39,322 nt of DNA from Alphaproteobacteria bacterium (GTDB taxonomy: Bacteria > Pseudomonadota > Alphaproteobacteria > GCA-2731375): contig JASLMY010000016.1 in the NCBI GenBank assembly GCA_030746295.1, forward strand, positions 1-39,322, read 5' to 3'. Within the stretch, counting starts at the first letter, position 1. Each line of letters opens with the position of its first letter. Under the pieces are notes generated by a model. It searched no databases and was not told the DNA's origin. It saw only the letters and a program-made list of their open reading frames with translations. A program made the position numbers and the translations under genes. This document shows positions 6,618 through 39,091 of this stretch, one piece after another.

Positions 6618-7217
6618 ATGCCGAATCTCGCGTCAAAAATCACTTCCCTTCTTTGCCTGATGGCATTTCTCGGGCTCGTGCCGGCGGCATCGGCCGAGGT
6701 TCCAGCGACGCTGGTCACCGGCGCCGTGGCCAACTTCGCGGTCACGACGCCGCCCAAGCCGGCGCCCGAGATCAACTTCGTCGACATTGACGGCAAACCG
6801 ATGACGCTCTCGGCCTTTCGCGGCAAGGTCGTGTTCCTCAACTTCTGGGCCACCTGGTGCGCCCCCTGCCGGCGCGAGATGCCCGATATCGACGCCTTGC
6901 AAGCCAAATACGGCCCGGCCGGCCTGGCGGTAGTGGCGCTCTCGGCCGACCGCAAGGGACCTTCGGTGATCCCGCCCTTCTACGAGCAGACCGGCGTCGA
7001 GCACTTGGCGGTCTACAACGATAGAAGCATGAAGTCGAACCGGGCCTTCCGCGTCGTCGGCCTGCCGACGACGGTGATCCTGGACCGCCAGGGCCGCGAG
7101 GTCGGCCGCCTGATCGGCCCCGCCGAATGGGCCAGCCCCGAGGCCCTGGCCCTGATCGAGCACCTGGTCGGCGAGACCGATCGGCCGGCCCTCAAGAAGG
7201 CCAGCACCGGCGGCTGA
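6618..7217 (+). CDS. TlpA-type periplasmic thiol-disulfide oxidoreductase
   Basis: 199 residues. A signal peptide covers residues 1-26 (hydrophobic [12 protein letters not shown], cleavage after AASA). A thioredoxin fold follows, with C81-A-P-C84 in [18 protein letters not shown] and the cis-proline loop [11 protein letters not shown]. These features place it in the TlpA/ResA group, which reduces disulfides in exported proteins, often apocytochrome c or copper-handling proteins. The start was chosen because an ATG immediately precedes the signal sequence; the longer upstream frame runs through argH. In many alphaproteobacteria a TlpA-like gene is divergent from argH. The partner substrate cannot be told from this window. 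Confidence 0.88.
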
Positions 7218-7258
7218 GGACCAAGAGCGCCCAGGACATCTCGAGGCGGCGTCGGGCG

Positions 7259-26567: not shown

Positions 26568-29500
26568 TCAGGTTTCCTCCGCCGGGCCGTCCGCCGCCGT
26601 GGCCCGGTTCTGGCGCCAGAGGTTGACGCGCCCGACGCCCCACCACACCAGCAGGCCGAGGGCGATCACGAGTGCCAGCGACGAAGCCGGTATCGGCGTC
26701 GTGCCGAGATAGCCGATCGAGGCCACCAACACGGCGATGCCGAGGACGAGCGTCGCCACCGTGGCATTGCGCGAGAGCCGGAGCCGCCGGCTGCCGATGG
26801 CGACGATCCCGATCCAAAGCAGGATCGTGCCGACGAGGCTCGCCAGCAGCGCGAGCTGATCGGCCCCGGCCGAGGCATAGCGGATCGTGAAGGCCGCCGC
26901 TTCGGGCGACTGGTTGGCGTAGAGCTTCTCGAAGGCGAAGAGGATGCCCTGGGTCGGCACCGAGATGCGGAGCGGCTGCCCCATCTGCGCCCGCTGCGCC
27001 TCGCTCGCCCGGTCCAGGCTCTTCTGGGCGGCGCGGCGCGGGTTCGCCCAGCGGCCGCCGACGACCAGGTCCATCGTGCTGTCGGGGGCCTGGTAGCGGG
27101 GGCCCGTCGGCAGGAAGACGTTCCAGCGGCTGTGCGTCACCACCATGTCGGGCCGGGGCAGGTGGCTGGAGAGGCTGCCCAGCGTCGTCATCGGCGCCAT
27201 CGGGGTGGCGTAAACGATATCGACCGGGAAACCGGCGGCGGAGTTGATCATCTTGATCAGAACCGCGTCGCCGTTCCGGCCCTCGCCGTCGCCGGCAAAG
27301 GCCGGCTTCTCGGGCTTGCCGTCGACGAACACCGACCAGACCTTCGATCCCGCCGGCAGGCCCAGCCGCAGGAACTGCCGCCGGCTGTTGCGGACGTCGA
27401 GGCGCGCGGTGGTCACCGCCAGGCCGTCGCGGGTGAAGAGCGACGAGTAGACGGCCCGCTCGATCGCCGCCACCTGGACGTCGATCTCCTTGTGGCGGGT
27501 GATCTTGAGGGCCAGCGTGAAGGGCGGCTTGGCGTGCACGTAGCGAAAGGCCATCAGGATCGGGTTGGTGGTCTTGAGGACGAGCTGCTGCGGCAACTCG
27601 TTCAGGTCCAGGTTGGAGAGCCGGTCGGTACGGCTGGCGCTGACCTCGACCGCGGTCAGGGCCTCGACCGCGATCCGCCCGTGCTCGACCTCGGCCTCCA
27701 TCACCGAGATCGTCGGCACCACCGGCTCCGAGGCCTCGCCGTCCATGATCCGCTCATAGGCGACCTCGATGCGGAAGCGCCCCTCCATCTCGCGGGTGAA
27801 CTCCAGCGCGATGGTCTGGGCGCCGTCCTCGGCCTCGCGCACCTGCTGCGAGCGTAGCGAGGGGCCCGAGACGCCGAGCACGTTGACGTCGGCCGGCAGG
27901 CGCAGGATCAGCTCCATGATGGTGCCGGACTTGACGTCGATCTCGACCGTGGCCGAGCCCTTCATGGTGACGTCGCCGAGTGAGATCAGGGTGTCGACCT
28001 GGGCGTCGAACTTGCCCTGGCGGCGCTCCGGCGCCACCGTCTTCACCTCCAGCGTCGGCCGGGGCTCGGTGTATTTGTAGGTATGGGCTACGGTCATGGT
28101 GATCTGGTTGCGGACGAAGGCCGGCAACTGGTTCTCGCCGACGCGGCTGACGCCGGTCTCGGTCACCGGCTTCAGCGCCAGTTCCTGGCCCGACAGAAGC
28201 GCCACCATGCCGCGCTGGCGGTTGACCTTGTCGGCGCTCAGAAGCGGCACGGAGAAGCCCGCCTCCGGGTCGCCGCCGCCCAAGAGCCGCTCGTAGGCGA
28301 TCTCCAGGACGTACTCGCCTTTTTGCGCGACCTCGAGGAAGACGTTGATCCGCTTCCGCCCGGGCTCGTCCGAATCCGCGACCGCCCAATCCGACAAGCC
28401 GCCGCCGGGGGCGGTGATCCGGTTGACCTGGGTGTCCGCCGGGATTTCGAGCGTCAGCTGGTTGGTCTCGCCGTGCGAGATCTCGTAGACGATCGTGGCG
28501 CGGCCGTGCAGCACGCCTTCCTCCGCGTGGACGGCATGATAGAGGCTGGCGTTGGCCCGGAACGGCGCCCTCAGGTTCACCGGTATGGCGTCGGTCCAGC
28601 TGAAGGTGACGGCATCGCTCATGGGGATGAAGACGCTCGCCCGCGTGCCGTCGTCGGTCTCGCTGGTGACCACGTTGGCGCCGGGGCTGGCCTTGACGAC
28701 CTTGCGTCCCGGCAGCTCCAACTCGAAATGGGAGACCGGGATGCGGGGAATCTGAAGATGCGCCTGCGGCGGGCCGGCATCGTCGACCACCGGCACCTGG
28801 AAAGAGACCCGGACGTCGTGCATGCCGCGCCCGTCCAACAGCACGCCGAAGCGGCCGCCCTCTTCCAGCACCGTCGCCGCCTCGCCGTCGACGCGGATCT
28901 CGTTCAAGGTCACGGCGCTCGGCATCAGCGGCAGCGTCACCACCTCGTCCCGGAACATCTCGACCCGGAAATGGGCGGTCCAGACCATGGCGTCCTCTTT
29001 CAGGGCGCCCGTGTAGTCGGCCCGGCCGATGGCATAGGGGCGCTCGGCGGGTGCGCGCCAGGTGACTAGGATCGACGAGGTCGCCGGCACGCTGGCGGTG
29101 TAGTGCGTCCTGCCCTGGCGCTCGACCCGGCGGAGCTCGGTCGAGGGCACCACCGCCAGGTCGGCACCGACGCCGGGGAAGGTGAGGCCGAAGGTCGTCG
29201 CCGCCGCCACCGGCACCGGCAGGGGCAAGACGAAACCGCTCTCCGAGCGCTGGGCATCGACGCCATAGGCGAGCTGCATGGTGACGACGCCGGCCTTGTC
29301 GGTGCTCCAGGCCAGGCCTTCGGGCCCGTGCACCAACTGCACCGGGCGGCCGTTCGCGGTGGCGTGGCGGAGCACCGTGCCCGGTGGCAGGATCGGGACC
29401 AGGATCCACTCGTTCTCGAAGGTCTCGATGCGGATATTGACGTTGACCTGGGCGCTGAAGCGGCCCTCGAACTCGGCGATCCGCACCGTGACGTTCGACT

Positions 29501-29687
29501 GGCCGATGGCGTAAGCCGCCGGTGCCGACCTCGGCTCCTTGGAGAGCTGGTTCAGCATCTGGGTGTAGACGGGAAGCGGCACGGTGACCTGGCCCGTATC
29601 CGCCGGTGCGGCTTTCGTGGCCACCGATTCCGTCGCCATGGCGGCCGGCGCCAGCAGCAGGGCGATCCAGACTAGCAATGCTCTCAT
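26568..29687 (-). CDS. Large exported beta-rich membrane-anchored protein of unknown family
   Basis: 1039 residues, not recognised. A signal peptide covers about residues 1-18 (RALLVWIALLLAPAAMA). Some 900 residues rich in strand patterns follow, with repeated 'V-x-E-I-x-Y-E-R' elements (YVLEIAYERLLGG, RFRIEVAYERIMDG), as if made of several similar beta-sandwich units. The C-terminus has three hydrophobic helices at about 944-965, 976-995 and 1003-1022, so most of the chain should face the periplasm or outside with a membrane anchor. It is the last gene in a unit with an ECF sigma factor and an anti-sigma/VWA protein, and starts 36 bases after that gene. A surface or envelope role regulated by that sigma factor is inference. 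Confidence 0.7.
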   Translation of the reverse strand: MRALLVWIALLLAPAAMATESVATKAAPADTGQVTVPLPVYTQMLNQLSKEPRSAPAAYAIGQSNVTVRIAEFEGRFSAQVNVNIRIETFENEWILVPILPPGTVLRHATANGRPVQLVHGPEGLAWSTDKAGVVTMQLAYGVDAQRSESGFVLPLPVPVAAATTFGLTFPGVGADLAVVPSTELRRVERQGRTHYTASVPATSSILVTWRAPAERPYAIGRADYTGALKEDAMVWTAHFRVEMFRDEVVTLPLMPSAVTLNEIRVDGEAATVLEEGGRFGVLLDGRGMHDVRVSFQVPVVDDAGPPQAHLQIPRIPVSHFELELPGRKVVKASPGANVVTSETDDGTRASVFIPMSDAVTFSWTDAIPVNLRAPFRANASLYHAVHAEEGVLHGRATIVYEISHGETNQLTLEIPADTQVNRITAPGGGLSDWAVADSDEPGRKRINVFLEVAQKGEYVLEIAYERLLGGGDPEAGFSVPLLSADKVNRQRGMVALLSGQELALKPVTETGVSRVGENQLPAFVRNQITMTVAHTYKYTEPRPTLEVKTVAPERRQGKFDAQVDTLISLGDVTMKGSATVEIDVKSGTIMELILRLPADVNVLGVSGPSLRSQQVREAEDGAQTIALEFTREMEGRFRIEVAYERIMDGEASEPVVPTISVMEAEVEHGRIAVEALTAVEVSASRTDRLSNLDLNELPQQLVLKTTNPILMAFRYVHAKPPFTLALKITRHKEIDVQVAAIERAVYSSLFTRDGLAVTTARLDVRNSRRQFLRLGLPAGSKVWSVFVDGKPEKPAFAGDGEGRNGDAVLIKMINSAAGFPVDIVYATPMAPMTTLGSLSSHLPRPDMVVTHSRWNVFLPTGPRYQAPDSTMDLVVGGRWANPRRAAQKSLDRASEAQRAQMGQPLRISVPTQGILFAFEKLYANQSPEAAAFTIRYASAGADQLALLASLVGTILLWIGIVAIGSRRLRLSRNATVATLVLGIAVLVASIGYLGTTPIPASSLALVIALGLLVWWGVGRVNLWRQNRATAADGPAEET

Positions 29688-29723
29688 CTCACTATCCTCT
29701 CCAGGGCCTCGGGCGAGGGCGCC

Positions 29724-32471
29724 TCACTTCCGTCTGCTGTGCAGCTTCGAGAAGGCCGCATAGCGCAGGGAATCCGCCAGGTAGCGGCGTTGTACGGGGT
29801 CGGTCGCCTGGGGCGAGCCGAGAACCCTCAGATAGCCGGCCAGCGCGGCCTCGTCGGCGGCGAGATCGCCATCCGTCGACCAGCCCTCGACCTCGAAGCG
29901 CAAGCCGCGGACCAGGGCCTTGAGGCGGGCGATCATCGCCGCCGCCTCCGCCGTTCGGCCGGCCTCGAAATAGTCTCCGTAGCGCCGAGCCTCGCGGGCC
30001 AGCTCATAGGCCAGCAGGTTCTTCAAGACGTTCCGCTCCAGCGGTCCGGCGGGCCGCTCGCCGGCAGGGATCGTCAGCCGGGCATGGGCGACGCCGTTCT
30101 TGAGGAAGACGACGTCCTTGTAGCGTGCCGTCACGTCGGCGATCGGGCCCGGCCGCTCGGCCACCACATCCAGCAAGACGACGTGCGAGTCGCCGGCGTA
30201 GAAGTTGGGGATGACGATCTGGATGCCCTCTTCGTCGGCACCGCGGTCGGCCGTGATGCCGAGGTTGCGGGCCAGGCGGCGGTCGATGGCGCGCTCGGCC
30301 TCGCGGACGCGCGCGGCCTGTGGTGCATCCAGGCGTCGCGAGCCCAAGACGTCGACGAGCTTGACCCCAGGTGCCAGGCGGATCCGCAAGCGCACGGCGC
30401 GGGCGACGGCACGGCTCGCCGCGTGCAGCTCGCGGTCGACCAACTCCTCGGCTTCGGCGGCCGCGGCCAGGACGCGGCGGTTGCCCTGGCCGGCGGCAAC
30501 CAGACGATCGACTTGGGCGGTCGCAACCCCCGAGCCCAGGCAGATGACGCTCGTCGGCAGGCCGCCGACGGCGTTCTCGTGCGCGATGCGCTCAAGGGCC
30601 GCGAATGGTTCGGCAATCGACGATCCGGTCGCCAGCACCAAGAGGCTCGCGCCCAGGACGGCGTCCTCGGCCGCACTTTCCCTGACGCTGGCCGCCGCCA
30701 TAGAGACCGCCTCGACCAGGCTGGTCGCGGGCCCGACGCGCTCGCCATCGGCAGCGGCGAAGAGCCGCGCCATCGCCACCTTCAGGGGGCCGTGGCGGAA
30801 CGAGTCGGGTGCCACGACCATGCCGCCCGAGGGGCCGGCAACGGTCAGCGAGAACCGGTCGCCCGGCTGGCGGGCCCGCTCCAACGCCTCGACCAGGGCA
30901 CGGATGCGGGGGCCCAGCGTGCGGTCGCTCTTGTCCCTGAGATCGACCACGAGGCCGACGTTCATGGCCGGGCGATGGCCGCCGCGCCTGGCCGCGCCCT
31001 TGAGGCCGACCTGGACGCGGAGCCGGGTCGGCCCCTGGATGCTGGCGACGTCGGCGTTCAGTTGGAGGGTCAGCGCCGCCGCCTCGGGCGGATCGAAGAG
31101 CTGCGTCACCGGCCGCACCGATTGCTCCAGGCTGGCCGGGCGGCCGAGCTGGCGGCGGTCCCAGGCGCCGAGCCGGCTCGCCAAGAGATGCATGTCGGGA
31201 TCGCCGGGGACGTAGCTGTTCGACCAGTAGCCGGTCGCCTCCTGGAAGCTCGGGCCCTCGACGGCCGAAATCCGCCTGAGGAAAGCGCGGGCCTCGCCAC
31301 GCGCCTGCTCGGGCGAATTCGCGGCGGCCAGGTTTCGCCGCTGGCCGTAGCGACGGCTCGCCGAGTCCTTGGCGACGGACGAGGACGGCTCGCTAGCCCG
31401 TGGCCGTTGGGCGGCCTCGCGGTCCGCGGCCTTGTCGTCGCCCAGCCGGCGGTGTCGGGCGTCTTCGGGCGTCGCCGCCAGCCGGCGTTTCTTGGTGACG
31501 GGGGCCGGCTTCGCGGTCGCGGACTTCGCGGCCTCGCCGACGGTCGTCAGCTTGTCGGCAAGACCCTTGTGCCGCCCGCTCTCGCGCAGCATGCCGGCGC
31601 CCCCGGCCCTCTGCCCGCGCACCGTCGTCCTGGCTTCGGCCTCCGCGTTGGCCTTCCGCTCGAAAGCATCGGAACGATCCGAGCTGGCGCCGGTGCCGGC
31701 GTGGTAGCGGTTCTCCGCCTGGTTCTTGCCGCCCAGGAGTCGCCTTGCCGTCGCCGGCTTCTTCTGCAGGTCGGCCAAGCGGGCGTTGCCGGTCCCTTGG
31801 TTGCGGAGGGCCATATCGGGCTTGGCCTTCTGCTTCGCGGGTGCCGTCTGCATCTGCAAGCGGGCGACGATCTCGGCTTCCTTGCCGATCCGCACCTGTT
31901 CAGGCCGGGCCTCGTCCCTGGCTTGACCTTCGGCGACATCCGCGTCGGCGTAGGCCCCCTGTGGCTGCGTCTGATTTGCCTCCAGCCGCCCGCCGACGCT
32001 GTCGAGCTCGCTCTTGCGGAAGGCGAACCGCTCGCCCGAGGTCGGCGCCGGCGCGTCGACGATCGCCTCGGTCATCGGCGCCTCGGCGACCATCTTATTG
32101 GACCAACCGAAGTCGACGCCGGCCTCGAAGCTCGGCAGCTGCAAGAGGCTATAGCTCAAATTCAGGCCGGCCAGCATGACGACCGAAGCCGCCAGCGCGG
32201 CGGCGGTTTGGCGGCGGCCGACACCGGCCGTGGCCGACCCCCGGTCCTGATGCACCGCCCGGCGCACCGCCGCCAGGCTGGCGGCCGCCACGGCCTCGGG
32301 CGCGTCGTGCTCGGGCAGCGCCGCGAGGCCTGAGTCGAGCCGGGCGAGCGCTTCGGCGATAGCGGTGCAGTCGACGCAACCGTCGAGGTGACGGGCGAGC
32401 TCGGCCTCGGCCCGGACCGTCTGGATGCCGCCTTCCGCCAGGAGGCCCTGGACCTGGTCACAGATGCTCAT
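29724..32471 (-). CDS. Anti-sigma zinc-finger / membrane / VWA-domain fusion protein
   Basis: 915 residues. The N-terminus has H28-x3-C32-x2-C35 (ARHLDGCVDC), with C4, as in anti-sigma zinc-finger domains. One membrane helix is at about 89-111 (ALAASVVMLAGLNLSYSLL). Residues 150-400 form a long hydrophilic K/R/A/Q-rich linker. A YfbK-like segment (YWSNSYVPGDPDM, 415-427) leads to a VWA domain from about 502. The rest, to 915, resembles the C-terminal region of YfbK-type proteins. The metal site is degenerate: D510-L-R-D-K instead of DxSxS. The start overlaps the sigma-factor stop by 14 bases. It is probably the cognate anti-sigma factor with an exterior sensor. Confidence 0.75.
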   Translation of the reverse strand: MSICDQVQGLLAEGGIQTVRAEAELARHLDGCVDCTAIAEALARLDSGLAALPEHDAPEAVAAASLAAVRRAVHQDRGSATAGVGRRQTAAALAASVVMLAGLNLSYSLLQLPSFEAGVDFGWSNKMVAEAPMTEAIVDAPAPTSGERFAFRKSELDSVGGRLEANQTQPQGAYADADVAEGQARDEARPEQVRIGKEAEIVARLQMQTAPAKQKAKPDMALRNQGTGNARLADLQKKPATARRLLGGKNQAENRYHAGTGASSDRSDAFERKANAEAEARTTVRGQRAGGAGMLRESGRHKGLADKLTTVGEAAKSATAKPAPVTKKRRLAATPEDARHRRLGDDKAADREAAQRPRASEPSSSVAKDSASRRYGQRRNLAAANSPEQARGEARAFLRRISAVEGPSFQEATGYWSNSYVPGDPDMHLLASRLGAWDRRQLGRPASLEQSVRPVTQLFDPPEAAALTLQLNADVASIQGPTRLRVQVGLKGAARRGGHRPAMNVGLVVDLRDKSDRTLGPRIRALVEALERARQPGDRFSLTVAGPSGGMVVAPDSFRHGPLKVAMARLFAAADGERVGPATSLVEAVSMAAASVRESAAEDAVLGASLLVLATGSSIAEPFAALERIAHENAVGGLPTSVICLGSGVATAQVDRLVAAGQGNRRVLAAAAEAEELVDRELHAASRAVARAVRLRIRLAPGVKLVDVLGSRRLDAPQAARVREAERAIDRRLARNLGITADRGADEEGIQIVIPNFYAGDSHVVLLDVVAERPGPIADVTARYKDVVFLKNGVAHARLTIPAGERPAGPLERNVLKNLLAYELAREARRYGDYFEAGRTAEAAAMIARLKALVRGLRFEVEGWSTDGDLAADEAALAGYLRVLGSPQATDPVQRRYLADSLRYAAFSKLHSRRK

Positions 32472-33135
32472 GGTCCCCTCCGCTCGCTTCGGCCGCGGCC
32501 TCGCGCCGCAGCATCGCCCGGGCCAGCCCCAGCCGGGCGCGGCGCAGATGCGTCTTCACGGTGTTGAGCGGCAGCTCCAGGGCCTCGGCGACGTCTCGCT
32601 GGGCCAAGCCGGCGATCGTCACCAGGACCAGCACCTGACGCTGCATCGCCGGCAGCGCCGCCATCTCGGCTTCCAGCCAGGCGACGGTCTCGCGCGCCTC
32701 GAGAACCCGTTCCGGCCCCGGCACGGGGTCCAGCGCCTCCGCCAGATCTTCGTCGGCGGAGACCAGGCTCGCATCGGGGCTGTCGCGAAAATGGTTGCGT
32801 ACCGTGTTGGCGGCGATGGTGAAGAGCCAGGGCGCCAGTGGACGCGCCGGCTGGTAGCGCGCCGCGGCCTGATGGATTTTGAGAACGATGCTTTGAAAGA
32901 GGTCGTCCCGCTCCGCTTCTCGAACGCCGGAGCGGACGAGGTAGCCGTAGAGGGGCCGGCGATAGGCGGCGAGAAGGGCGGCAAAGGCCGTTTCGTCGCC
33001 GCGGCAATGGCGCGTCAGCCAACCCCGTTCCTCCAGGTCCACGACCGGCCGGGCCGCCGCAGGCGCTTCACTTTGGGCGTCGCTCGTTCCTGCCGGCATG
33101 GGATCCGATCTCTGAGCCGCTTCCGCCGTCCTCAT
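32458..33135 (-). CDS. ECF-family RNA polymerase sigma factor
   Basis: 225 residues from the ATG at 33133-33135 (a second ATG at 33099 gives 213 residues). Region 2 contains FAALLAAYRRPLYGYLVRSG, then DLFQSIVLKIHQ and WLFTIAANTVRNHFRD. Region 4 contains ALPAMQRQVLVLV and GLAQRDVAEALELPLNTVKT plus HLRRARLGLARAM. No sigma1.1 or region 3, as in ECF factors. Upstream of the first ATG there is no clear Shine-Dalgarno. It is first in the unit and overlaps the anti-sigma/VWA gene by 14 bases. The expected role is to direct transcription of this unit and possibly others under envelope signals. Confidence 0.85.
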   Translation of the reverse strand: MRTAEAAQRSDPMPAGTSDAQSEAPAAARPVVDLEERGWLTRHCRGDETAFAALLAAYRRPLYGYLVRSGVREAERDDLFQSIVLKIHQAAARYQPARPLAPWLFTIAANTVRNHFRDSPDASLVSADEDLAEALDPVPGPERVLEARETVAWLEAEMAALPAMQRQVLVLVTIAGLAQRDVAEALELPLNTVKTHLRRARLGLARAMLRREAAAEASGGDHEHL

Positions 33136-33158
33136 GTGAAGCAGTACCCCATGAGGGC

Positions 33159-33171
33159 GTGAAAGTTTCAC
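33159..33171. promoter_or_regulatory. Palindrome GTGAAA-G-TTTCAC upstream of the sigma gene
   Basis: A perfect inverted repeat with 6-base arms lies 24 bases before the sigma-factor ATG. On the minus strand it reads GTGAAACTTTCAC; the GAAACTT resembles the -35 'GGAACTT' of ECF promoters, and GGTACT (33143-33148) 16 bases on may be a -10. It may be an autoregulated promoter or an operator. Confidence 0.35.
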
Positions 33172-33442: not shown

Positions 33443-33798
33443 AGCAGTTCACGATCGGTCGCGACCGGCTCGCGGGGTTCGCTGCCACCCCCACCTAAAT
33501 CCTCCCCCATCAAGGGGGAGGACTTAAGCGCTTGCGCTGCAATAAACTTTCCCCCCTTGTGGGGGAGGGCCAGGGTGGGGGGCGTCGAGACGAATCTGAC
33601 CGAACCGGATTTGCTCTAGCGGCTTGCGACCGTCCGTCCCGGGCCGAGCCGGCGTGGTACGGCAAGGCGGAGTGACGAAGCGGCCGGCGTTTTGTAGGAT
33701 TCCTCTCGATTGGGTTTCGGCCATCGCCGGCCAGCTTGTCGGAAGACACCAAGGCCGCCAGAGAGAGCCGCGTTCCGAAGTCGACCGGAGTTAAGAAG
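33443..33798. other. Gene-free stretch with a repeat
   Basis: About 356 bases. The repeat at 33484-33584 occupies its centre. The remainder up to 33798 has an open frame in line with the small gene that follows (from a TTG at 33736), but I see no promoter or terminator I would defend. Confidence 0.5.
33484..33584. repeat. Dispersed repeat with two G/C-run hairpins
   Basis: Two hairpins, CCTCCCCC-ATCAA-GGGGGAGG (33501-33521) and CCCCCC-TTGT-GGGGGAGGG (33551-33569), are framed by GCCACCCCCACCT on the left and AGGGTGGGGGGC on the right. This is the layout of the widespread 'CCCCACCCTAACCCTCCCCC...GGGGGAGGGTAGGGTGGGG' intergenic element of proteobacteria. The purine/pyrimidine runs stand out sharply from the surrounding mixed coding DNA. 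Confidence 0.65.
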
Positions 33799-34005
33799 AT
33801 GGACCAAGACGACTTGCGCCACATCGTCGCTGCCATGCTCGCCAACGCCAGCGTGCAGGCGGACAATCTGAAAACCCCGAAAGCCGTGGTCCGCCGTTTC
33901 GTGGAGATCTACGGCGTTCTCGCCGACGACGACACCATGGACGACCTCGTCGGCGCCACCATGGTGGGCAAGGGCCGGCACAAGCTGGGAAGCGGCCGCA
34001 GCTGA
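33799..34005 (+). CDS. Small hypothetical protein, 68 residues
   Basis: From the ATG of MDQDDLRHIVAAMLANASVQ, preceded by CGGAGTTAAGAAG. The reading is helix-rich (DDLRHIVAAMLANA, PKAVVRRFVEIYGVL, DDTMDDLVGATMVGKG) and ends with a basic tail KLGSGRS. A TTG at 33736 would add 21 residues. No family recognised and no motif beyond acidic N- and basic C-terminus. It ends 8 bases before the convergent amidase stop. Confidence 0.5.
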   Translation: MDQDDLRHIVAAMLANASVQADNLKTPKAVVRRFVEIYGVLADDDTMDDLVGATMVGKGRHKLGSGRS

Positions 34006-37033: not shown

Positions 37034-39091
37034 CTATTTGCCCTCCATGACGTTGACGCCGTCCCAATCGGCGTCGGGCGGGTTCTCGGCGAACTCGTGC
37101 GCCCGCGCCGCCATCACTTGGGCAGGGCCGTCCTCGGGCCCGGCCGCCTGCCAACGATCGGCCGCTTCGGCGAAGCGGCGCTGGCGGTAGAGGGCCAGGG
37201 CCTCGGCGTATCGGGCCGCCGTCGCCCGCTCGGCCTCGCCGGCGGCATCGCTCCGGGCCAGCGGCTCGAAGATCGTCAGCGGCTCGGCGCGGCCCTTGAC
37301 CGCGACCCAATCGATCTCGCGCAGCAGCATCTCGTCGTCCACCGCCGCCGCCGTCGTCGGTCCGATCAGGAACGAGCAGCCGTAGACCCCGGGCAGGCTC
37401 TCCATCCGCGCGGCGACGTTCACGGTCTCGCCGACGGCGGTGTAGTTGTAGCGCTTCTCCGAGCCGACGTTGCCGACGATCGCCTCGCCCGAATAGACGC
37501 CGATCTTGATGCCGAAGCCGTGCTCGCCCCTGGCCGCCGCCTGGCGGGCCGCCTCTTGGATGCGCTGCAAGGCCTTGAAGCCGGCATCCACCGCATGCCG
37601 GGCATGTTCCGGGTCCGCCACCGGCGCGCCCCAGATCGCCATCACGGCGTCGCCGATATACTTGTCGACATAGCCCCCGCTGTCGTCGACCTCGTCGCTG
37701 ACGAGGGCCAGATACTGGTTGGTGAGCGCCACCAGCTCCTCGGGCCCGACCTTGGTGGAGAGGGCGGTGAAGCCGGAAAGATCCGCGAACATCACCGTCA
37801 CCGGACGCACCGTGCCGCCGAGATGCAGGGCATTTGGATCGTCGGCCAGGCTCTCGACCAGGCTCGGCGCCAGGTAGCGCCCGAAGGCGCGCTGGATAGA
37901 GAGGCGGCGGCGCTCTTCGACCAGGTAGTGGACGAGGTAGCCGAGCCCCGTCGAGACCGCCACCGCCAGCATCGGCAGTGCCGCCGGCAGCCAGAGCCGG
38001 CTCTCGATCAGCACCACCTCGCCGGCCCAGAGCGCCAGAATCGAGAGCAGCGCCAGCACCACCGCCGTCCAGGGGGCCAGGACCATCCCGACCACCGCGC
38101 CCAATCCGCCGGCGAGGCCGGCCAGGCCAATTCGAAACCAGACCGGAACCGGGCGCAGATGCTCGCCGGTAAGCGCGGCGTCGGCCGCCGAGGCGTGCAC
38201 GTAGACGCCGGGGACACTGCGCGACTTCGGCGCCGCGGAGGCAAGACGCGGCAGGGCGCAGGCCGCCTTCGGGTCGTCGGCAGGCGGTACCGTTCGGGAC
38301 AGATACCTGGATGACGGCACGGCGCGGTCCTCGACGGGCAGCACCGAGCCGATGAAGACGAGGCGGCCACCGAAGACCTCCCGCAAGCGTTCCGGCGCCT
38401 GGGTGGCGCAACGCAGCACATCGACAAGGGCATAGGTGGGCATGGATTCGAGCTGGCGCCTCGGCGCCGGCATCAGCTCCGCCGCCGCCACCTCGGTGCC
38501 AGCCCGGCCCAGGACCGCGCCGGCGATGCTCTTGTCCTTGGTGCCGTCCGGGTTGTCGAAATGCAATCGCACCCGACGGACGACCTCGTCCGAATCGGGG
38601 GGGATCTCCAAGCGACCGAGGGCGTTCGCTTGGGATCTGAGCGCCGCCCGAAAAGTCCTGACCGGCAGCGTATTGGCCGAGCGGCCGAGCACGATTCTAT
38701 CACGATGCCGAGAGAGGGCTTTCAGAAACGGCAGATCGTAGCCGCGGCTCAACTTGTTGGCGTCATAGGCGAACAACAGGTCGAAGGCGACGACCCGGGC
38801 GCCGGCGGCGCCGAGTGCGGTCACCAGCTCGGCCCAGATCGGGCTGAAGAGGACCCGCGGCAAGGCGGCGAGGTCGTCCGAATCGAGGCTGCGCTGATCG
38901 ATCGCGACGACGACGACCTTGGTTTCGGTCTCGGGCACCGTCGCCGGCCAGAGCTGCGCCCGCGCCGCCAGGGCGACGTCGAAGAGCCAGCCGTCGCCAA
39001 TCGTCGGCCCGTCCAGCTTGAACGACGCCAACGCGGCGGCGGCGAGACAGGCGGCGATGGTCGGAAGGGCGAAGCGGCGGCGCAGAGACAT
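37034..39091 (-). CDS. CHASE2-domain class III adenylate cyclase
   Basis: 685 residues. A membrane helix near 9-25 leads to a periplasmic CHASE2 sensor (about 30-310, with VVVVAIDQRSLDSDDLAALP and GGRLVFIGSVLP). Three helices lie near 318-340, 342-365 and 366-391, before the cyclase domain at about 430-610. Metal aspartates are D437 (MFADLSGFT) and D481 (YIGDAVMAIWG). Base-recognition residues are K477 and T551 (NYTAVGETVN), the bacterial adenylate pattern, with N558 and R562 for the transition state. The C-terminus has a TPR-like helix pair. It makes cAMP in response to an unknown envelope signal. It ends 85 bases before the GGT-like gene; an hyphenated hairpin (36978-36999) lies between them. 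Confidence 0.92.
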   Translation of the reverse strand: MSLRRRFALPTIAACLAAAALASFKLDGPTIGDGWLFDVALAARAQLWPATVPETETKVVVVAIDQRSLDSDDLAALPRVLFSPIWAELVTALGAAGARVVAFDLLFAYDANKLSRGYDLPFLKALSRHRDRIVLGRSANTLPVRTFRAALRSQANALGRLEIPPDSDEVVRRVRLHFDNPDGTKDKSIAGAVLGRAGTEVAAAELMPAPRRQLESMPTYALVDVLRCATQAPERLREVFGGRLVFIGSVLPVEDRAVPSSRYLSRTVPPADDPKAACALPRLASAAPKSRSVPGVYVHASAADAALTGEHLRPVPVWFRIGLAGLAGGLGAVVGMVLAPWTAVVLALLSILALWAGEVVLIESRLWLPAALPMLAVAVSTGLGYLVHYLVEERRRLSIQRAFGRYLAPSLVESLADDPNALHLGGTVRPVTVMFADLSGFTALSTKVGPEELVALTNQYLALVSDEVDDSGGYVDKYIGDAVMAIWGAPVADPEHARHAVDAGFKALQRIQEAARQAAARGEHGFGIKIGVYSGEAIVGNVGSEKRYNYTAVGETVNVAARMESLPGVYGCSFLIGPTTAAAVDDEMLLREIDWVAVKGRAEPLTIFEPLARSDAAGEAERATAARYAEALALYRQRRFAEAADRWQAAGPEDGPAQVMAARAHEFAENPPDADWDGVNVMEGK

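What the first reader, a model, noticed from the sequence alone, without database searches (positions are those of the whole stretch)
26568..33135. Self-contained unit: ECF sigma, anti-sigma/VWA fusion, giant exported membrane protein
Three minus-strand genes are tightly packed: the sigma-VWA overlap is 14 bases and the next gap is 36. A zinc-finger anti-sigma head, one membrane helix and a von Willebrand domain in one polypeptide would couple an external contact or envelope signal directly to sigma release. The third product, 1039 residues with a signal peptide and three C-terminal helices, has no family I recognise and could be the structure being sensed or built. The arrangement is more like a dedicated surface system than a general stress regulon.
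Basis: partly seen in the sequence, partly recalled or inferred. Interest (0 to 1): 0.72.

Follow-up and report, generated by a model that had tools for sequence, protein, structure and literature searches.

The report
Self-regulated sigma, pseudo-VWA, beta-scaffold operon
Three adjacent genes found together in several bacterial phyla look like one self-controlled unit, in which a membrane sensor holds back a transcription switch that seems to turn on mainly its own operon, including a large and so far undescribed cell-envelope protein.

Summary
In detail: ECF sigma (32458-33135, -), a 915-aa zinc-finger anti-sigma/TM/VWA-fold protein and an exported 1039-aa protein. The order is kept far beyond Alphaproteobacteria: of 51 relatives with over 4 kb held upstream, 46 have the VWA gene beside the giant and 39 the sigma gene too. 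A SigW-like promoter, GAAAC-N17/18-GTA, precedes the sigma gene in 33 of 42 upstream regions, the window included (33145-33170). Exact matches elsewhere in 28 genomes are near control level (101 v 77), so the sigma looks largely self-targeted. Of 54 VWA proteins with complete starts, 39 have sigma and zinc-finger head, 8 neither, 7 one only; five of the eight start lipoprotein-like, so VWA plus giant is the constant core. The VWA fold has lost its metal site. The giant is a chain of beta modules, one shaped like the non-catalytic N-domain of M1 aminopeptidases, with no HExxH. My searches found no description in print. New variant of a known kind.

The parts
33145..33170 (-). ECF-type promoter TGAAAC...GTA (17 bases between GAAAC and GTA), 9 bases before the sigma start codon
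   Evidence: Only match of TGAAACYNTN{13,14}KGTA in the window, 0.01 expected; GAAAC-N16..19-GTA before sigma in 33 of 42 upstream regions; 0-1 at eleven other offsets
32458..33135 (-). ECF sigma factor, 225 aa (regions 2 and 4)
   Evidence: Pfam Sigma70_r2 and Sigma70_r4_2; start chosen because the promoter lies inside the longer ORF
29724..32471 (-). Anti-sigma / TM / linker / pseudo-VWA protein, 915 aa
32322..32471 (-). Residues 1-50: helical zinc-finger anti-sigma head (C4, H28, C32, C35)
   Evidence: Invariant in A3; profile matches RsiW, E 0.0079; at E up to 1, DUF3379 in 11 and zf-HC2 in 7 of 23 members of A2
32142..32219 (-). Residues 85-110: membrane helix
   Evidence: Predicted helix; hydropathy gives such a span in most complete relatives
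31317..32141 (-). Residues 111-385: variable linker, mostly unstructured in the model
   Evidence: pLDDT under 50 at 115-195 and 208-366; mean top-residue frequency 0.24
30411..30971 (-). Residues 501-687: VWA fold without MIDAS
30069..30410 (-). Residues 688-801: beta region after the VWA fold, the most conserved part of the protein
   Evidence: Mean top-residue frequency 0.72, 27 of 114 columns at 95% or more
26568..29687 (-). Exported protein, 1039 aa: chain of beta modules and three C-terminal helices
29040..29525 (-). Module 1 (residues 55-216; bounds drawn by me)
   Evidence: Repeat of module 2: HHalign probability 99.65
28575..29039 (-). Module 2 (residues 217-371), fold like the M1 aminopeptidase N-domain
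28029..28574 (-). Module 3 (residues 372-553)
   Evidence: Repeat of module 4: probability 99.2; modules 3-4 align with ribophorin I, rmsd 21; by eye an extra copy in P0006 and P0113
27483..28028 (-). Module 4 (residues 554-735), most conserved module
   Evidence: Mean top-residue frequency 0.68
26874..27482 (-). Module 5 and juxtamembrane strands (residues 736-938)
   Evidence: Weak: probability 75 to module 2, 23 to module 1, 11 to module 3, 3 to module 4
26592..26870 (-). Three C-terminal helices (residues 940-1032)
   Evidence: Predicted helices

Best explanation
The three genes form an insulated, autoregulated envelope cassette. Shown by sequence or model: an ECF sigma factor; a class I zinc-finger anti-sigma head followed by one membrane helix, a long variable linker and a pseudo-VWA plus beta region; an exported chain of beta modules with three C-terminal helices; and a SigW-like promoter just before the sigma gene, kept across phyla. 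Inferred: the head holds the sigma off RNA polymerase; the pseudo-VWA region lies in the periplasm and docks on the giant, perhaps through its conserved beta region 688-801 and the giant's modules 4-5; loss or change of docking frees the sigma (proteolysis of the anti-sigma protein is my best guess), which then transcribes chiefly its own operon. It would be a feedback loop that keeps a scaffold and its sensor in balance, not a general stress regulon.
For: Gene order: of 51 loci with over 4 kb upstream, VWA gene adjacent on the same strand in 46, sigma too in 39. Besides antisense ORFs over the three genes, the largest other protein cluster covers 9 of 79 loci, at scattered places. Zinc-finger head in 39 of 45 sigma-bearing and 1 of 9 sigma-less relatives; sigma-less VWA proteins start with lipoprotein-like or plain membrane segments, so VWA plus giant is the constant core. 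In 369 class-mates of Marinicella litoralis (itself among them): giant and VWA protein both in 6, giant only 1, VWA only 1, neither 361. Promoter in 33 of 42 upstream regions; GAAAC/GTA in 31 of 41 against 0-1 at eleven other offsets; no full motif in 9 sigma-less loci. Genome scans: in four genomes (G013, G416, G417, G418) the cassette's own promoter is the only match. Protein distances correlate at 0.78-0.86 over 41 loci.
Against: No experiment shows sigma-head binding, VWA-giant binding or release. Six of 45 sigma-bearing relatives lack the H-x3-C-x2-C motif, and L007 has the head but no sigma found. A phylogeny-aware test of sigma with head is not significant: five independent pairs, on average 2.8 the same way, 0.2 the other way, p 0.25. 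In L022 and L031 the VWA gene lies on another contig, and none was found in L029's draft genome. Distance correlations may reflect shared descent alone. The promoter pattern matches 120 times in 28 genomes, 77 in the reversed control; only 19 of the 28 loci carry it as their own promoter, so 101 matches are elsewhere, somewhat above control; in G015, G419 and G421 the single match is not the cassette's. Drafts are of unknown completeness and weaker targets cannot be excluded.
Confidence: 0.55

Rival explanations
1. A SigW-like general envelope-stress sigma: the VWA domain senses damage and the giant is one of many targets.
For: The promoter is close to the SigW consensus TGAAACN16,17CGTA (PMC2375139, passage); among solved anti-sigma structures the head profile matches RsiW best (E 0.0079); non-cassette matches (101) exceed the control (77).
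Against: In 4 of 28 genomes the cassette's own promoter is the only match. Of 21 non-cassette matches in four genomes, 18 lie inside ORFs of 100 aa or more; one (L174) sits 7 bases before a gene and one of the 18 (L175) 36 bases before an overlapping ORF.
Confidence: 0.2
2. The VWA domain is a metal-dependent adhesin or contact sensor, and the giant is a surface structure.
Against: Full DxSxS and TDG occur in 0 of 62 aligned rows; the VWA part is less conserved than the beta region after it (0.49 v 0.72). The predicted anchors do not place the parts on the cell surface, although a lipoprotein form could be there.
Confidence: 0.1
3. The VWA plus giant pair is an envelope machine with its own job, and sigma and head are a dispensable add-on that responds to something other than the pair's state.
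For: Sigma-less relatives keep VWA plus giant; the sigma state changes six times on the best tree of the giant.
Against: The head is covalently part of the VWA protein in sigma-bearing relatives, and the conserved promoter precedes the same operon.
Confidence: 0.15

Closest known systems
SigW-RsiW (B. subtilis) and other ECF / class I anti-sigma pairs
   Same: ECF sigma with regions 2 and 4, Hx3Cx2C head before a membrane helix, promoter close to TGAAACN16,17CGTA (PMC2375139 passage)
   Different: The far side is a long linker plus pseudo-VWA module, the operon ends with a giant exported protein, GTA in the window is preceded by G, and a wider regulon is not evident
Bat-type and YfbK-like VWA proteins
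   Same: VWA fold, with 4jdu (aerotolerance-related membrane protein) and 3ibs (BatB) ranked first and third; some listed members are named 'Ca-activated chloride channel family protein'. The YfbK link is recalled
   Different: MIDAS lost, anti-sigma head fused; the genes flanking the cassette in the window are not MoxR ATPases
ArnB / Sec23-24 core and inter-alpha-inhibitor heavy chain
   Same: VWA followed by beta and helical parts; Foldseek E 2.4e-14 to 8s05 and 9.5e-10 to 6fpz
   Different: TM-score by query only 0.24-0.26; no sequence link found in the PDB search
N-terminal domain of M1 aminopeptidases; ribophorin I
   Different: No HExxH, no profile-level sequence link, several modules in tandem and three C-terminal helices

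Membership tests
ECF sigma factors | Sigma regions 2 and 4, without region 3 | tested here: met
   Pfam PF04542 and PF08281; no region 3 among the 8 families listed
ECF sigma factors | Linked anti-sigma gene | tested here: met
   Overlapping gene with Hx3Cx2C head; linkage in relatives
ECF sigma factors | Promoter with AAC at -35 and CGT at -10 before the own operon (early definition, PMC8103513 passages) | tested here: inconclusive
   AAC present; the window has GGTA, relatives TGTA, GGTA or CGTA. Activity not testable here
Class I anti-sigma factors (ASDI/ZAS) | Hx3Cx2C motif in a short helical N-terminal domain | tested here: met
   H28, C32, C35, helices 2-75, RsiW match E 0.0079
Class I anti-sigma factors (ASDI/ZAS) | Binds and inhibits its sigma | not testable with these tools
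   Needs a binding assay
VWA domain proteins | VWA fold | tested here: met
MIDAS-type VWA adhesins | DxSxS and TDG metal-site motifs (definition recalled) | tested here: not met
   0 of 62 aligned rows have either; first Asp in 58 of 62
MoxR-VWA (Bat, RavA-ViaA) systems | Linked MoxR-type AAA+ ATPase | tested here: not met
   Flanking genes in the window are PEP mutase and amidase families; no MoxR search was run in relatives, but no other protein cluster exceeds 9 of 79 loci
M1 aminopeptidases | HExxH zinc site and catalytic domain | tested here: not met
   No HExxH in the giant; no M1 family in Pfam or NCBIfam scans of the window protein
Ribophorin I / OST1 | Membership by sequence or whole-chain fold | tested here: inconclusive
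   Two modules align by fold with rmsd 21; no PDB chain found by profile
FecR-type cell-surface signalling | FecR domain in the anti-sigma protein | tested here: not met
   No Pfam family in the 915-aa protein at E 10

The most novel reading that the evidence does not exclude
A closed single-operon signalling loop: an ECF sigma whose only real target is its own operon, held by an anti-sigma factor whose periplasmic pseudo-VWA arm directly reads whether a modular, aminopeptidase-N-domain-like envelope scaffold is present or loaded. The VWA plus scaffold pair would be an undescribed envelope machine found in Pseudomonadota, Myxococcota and Acidobacteriota.
Probability: 0.4. Interest if true: 0.75.

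Novelty: new variant of a known kind. Interest (0 to 1): 0.6.

Why it matters
ECF sigma systems often control several genes and their signals are hard to find. Here nature supplies controls: relatives without sigma whose VWA protein starts lipoprotein-like or with a plain membrane segment instead of the zinc-finger head, while VWA and giant are kept. That makes the proposed signal, the state of the giant scaffold, directly testable. It also puts a function hypothesis on two large protein families with over 500 clusters each at E 0.001; among the 120 listed of each, no giant and only one VWA member (P0183, DUF3379) bears a precomputed Pfam domain.

Tried and rejected
Rejected: M1 peptidase activity (no HExxH; HHalign of the five modules to 34 M1 N-domains gives probability 0.6-4.8, a little above the reversed controls of 0.1-1.0). 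Integrin-like reading of the giant: Foldseek ranks integrin alpha chains first but at TM about 0.1, so I gave it no weight. TolA match of the VWA protein's linker (E 0.0002): set aside as low complexity. Phage or defence origin: no PHROG hit for giant and VWA protein; PADLOC hits on the sigma only, E 0.004. RNA families: none at gathering threshold. DUF2070, 7TMR-DISM and HdeD matches of the giant are weak (E 0.2 or more) and lie in the C-terminal helices. In its relatives weak Pfam hits were not followed: BiPBP_C in 6 of 25 (best E 0.0045), DUF3188 and DUF3262 in one or two (best E 0.0004-0.0008).

Module homology: only 5 of 10 module pairs score above the highest reversed control (3.8): 1-2, 3-4, 2-5, 1-5, 3-5; the pairs 1-3, 1-4, 2-3, 2-4 and 4-5 do not. 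That all five are one fold rests on their similar strand pattern; the fold search mainly covers residues 212-367.

Literature: no paper on this fusion or operon in the searches. Seen by passages only: PMC12826043, PMC3174227, PMC7406223, PMC8103513, PMC2375139; the others by search listing. Supplementary tables could not be read here, so an anti-sigma group with a fused VWA could be listed in one.

Weak points of method: start codons in relatives are first-in-frame guesses; the genome-contig scan used two exact peptide patterns and kept the best 80 of 87 relatives (79 loci), so it undercounts; loci are not independent; the giant's model has pTM 0.34, so the arrangement of its modules is not to be trusted. 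Rows dropped: one search counts 51 of 79 loci with over 4 kb upstream and 54 of 79 with a complete VWA start; one search used 41 loci; the tree used 57 loci and the window. In one search, 33 of 369 genomes matched A2; 26 of these were left out of the co-occurrence count because they match in the head alone or, in G196, over 81 VWA-region residues at E 5e-4. G131 was counted as having both, each gene partial and on a different contig; the VWA-only case (G083) is a fragment at a contig end.
Full report
What is there. One search confirms three minus-strand genes at the stated places with a 14-base overlap and a 36-base gap. The first product is an ECF sigma factor with regions 2 and 4. The second, 915 aa, matches no Pfam or NCBIfam family even at E 10; the third, 1039 aa, has only weak hits in its C-terminal helices. 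At E 0.001 they have 503 and 536 homologous clusters among about 8000 scored candidates each (120 listed of each). Where a source gives a name, it is 'hypothetical protein' or, for some VWA members, 'Ca-activated chloride channel family protein'. Neighbouring genes in the window are EamA transporter, luciferase-like monooxygenase and PEP mutase on one side, amidase and gamma-glutamyltranspeptidase on the other.

Conservation of the unit. A scan of one genome for each of 84,980 species with two exact peptide patterns found 87 relatives, of which the best 80 were kept as 79 loci. By record title they come from Alpha- and Gammaproteobacteria, Myxococcota or 'Deltaproteobacteria', and Acidobacteriota, with a distant one labelled Omnitrophica. 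Of 51 loci with more than 4 kb held before the giant, 46 have the VWA gene directly upstream on the same strand, one has it divergently and four lack it; 39 of 51 also have the sigma gene. Apart from antisense ORFs over the three genes, no other protein cluster exceeds 9 of 79 loci. In 369 genomes of the class of Marinicella litoralis, that genome included, six have both giant and VWA protein, one the giant only and one a VWA fragment at a contig end only (Fisher p 1.5e-11, ignoring relatedness).

The head and the sigma go together. Of 54 VWA proteins with a complete start, 39 have sigma and H-x3-C-x2-C, 6 sigma without the motif, 1 the motif without sigma, 8 neither (Fisher p 2e-5, ignoring relatedness). 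Of the eight, L038 and L057 begin with a lipoprotein signal by pattern, L042, L044 and L052 by eye, and L009, L036 and L058 with a plain membrane segment. On the giant's best tree the sigma state changes six times. An independent-pairs test has too few pairs to be significant (p 0.25). The constant core is therefore VWA plus giant; sigma and head look like an exchangeable regulatory front end.

The promoter. In 33 of 42 regions before the sigma gene, the window included, GAAAC and GTA are spaced by 17 (29 cases) or 18 (4 cases). In one search the best word pair reached 32 of 42; 20 block shuffles gave 7-11. At eleven other offsets in the same loci this pair gave 0-1, and the best of any pair 8-17. 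In the window the motif is at 33145-33170, the only match of the longer pattern, 0.01 expected; it ends 9 bases before the start codon at 33135, so the message is probably nearly leaderless (inference). It is close to the SigW consensus TGAAACN16,17CGTA quoted in PMC2375139 (passage). Nine sigma-less loci lack the full motif (best 6-8 of 9 positions; 8 of 9 in L042), as do 400 random windows, of which 21 reach 8.

The regulon. The exact pattern gives 25 matches in four genomes (19 in the reversed control) and 95 in 24 further ones (58 in the control). Nineteen of the 28 loci carry the match as their own promoter; in G013, G416, G417 and G418 it is the only match in the genome, whereas in G015, G419 and G421 the single match lies elsewhere. 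Of 21 non-cassette matches in the first four genomes, 18 lie inside ORFs of 100 aa or more and one sits 7 bases before a gene that by eye looks like an esterase (L174). So the sigma appears to act chiefly on its own operon, but 101 matches elsewhere against 77 in the control leave room for further targets.

How it most likely works. The membrane-bound head sequesters the sigma; the linker and pseudo-VWA arm reach across the periplasm and touch the scaffold; a change in that contact frees the sigma, which remakes the whole set. The parts and the promoter are shown by sequence and models; binding, the direction of the signal and release by proteolysis are inferred from what is known of other class I anti-sigma factors. 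Distances of the three proteins correlate (0.78-0.86 over 41 loci), as expected for a unit but also for shared descent.

Verdict. It goes beyond Alphaproteobacteria, the VWA domain is a pseudo-VWA, and the giant is a modular protein of which at least one module has a known fold.

Noticed in passing
L084 2-1027 and L087 44-1021: In Thiotrichales the unlinked, sigma-less VWA gene directly follows a gene with many GLSRG/GVSRG pentapeptide repeats.
   Followed up: no
L055 13108-13962 and L056 13319-15310: A second VWA-type relative lies downstream of the giant in two 'Deltaproteobacteria'.
   Followed up: no
P0006 and P0113: Two giants carry an insert that by eye is an extra tandem copy of module 3.
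   Followed up: partly
L007 2350-5133: Zinc-finger head present but no sigma gene found upstream; the space to the previous gene is about 670 bases.
   Followed up: partly
L042, about 7198-7235: A sigma-less Acidobacteriota locus keeps TGAAACTTTC with a near -10 word (8 of 9 positions), perhaps a relic of the promoter; random windows reach 8 in 21 of 400.
   Followed up: no
L174 (genome of L011): One intergenic promoter match 7 bases before a gene that by eye looks like an esterase; no such match among the eight of the genome of L010.
   Followed up: partly
window 33736-34005 +: An 89-aa ORF next to the cassette has no Pfam family and only a weak PHROG match (E 0.021).
   Followed up: partly
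window 37034-39091 -: A CHASE2 plus adenylate cyclase protein lies a few kb upstream of the cassette.
   Followed up: no
L002: A locus labelled Desulfuromonadales encodes a giant 63% identical to the window's, perhaps a binning error or recent transfer.
   Followed up: no
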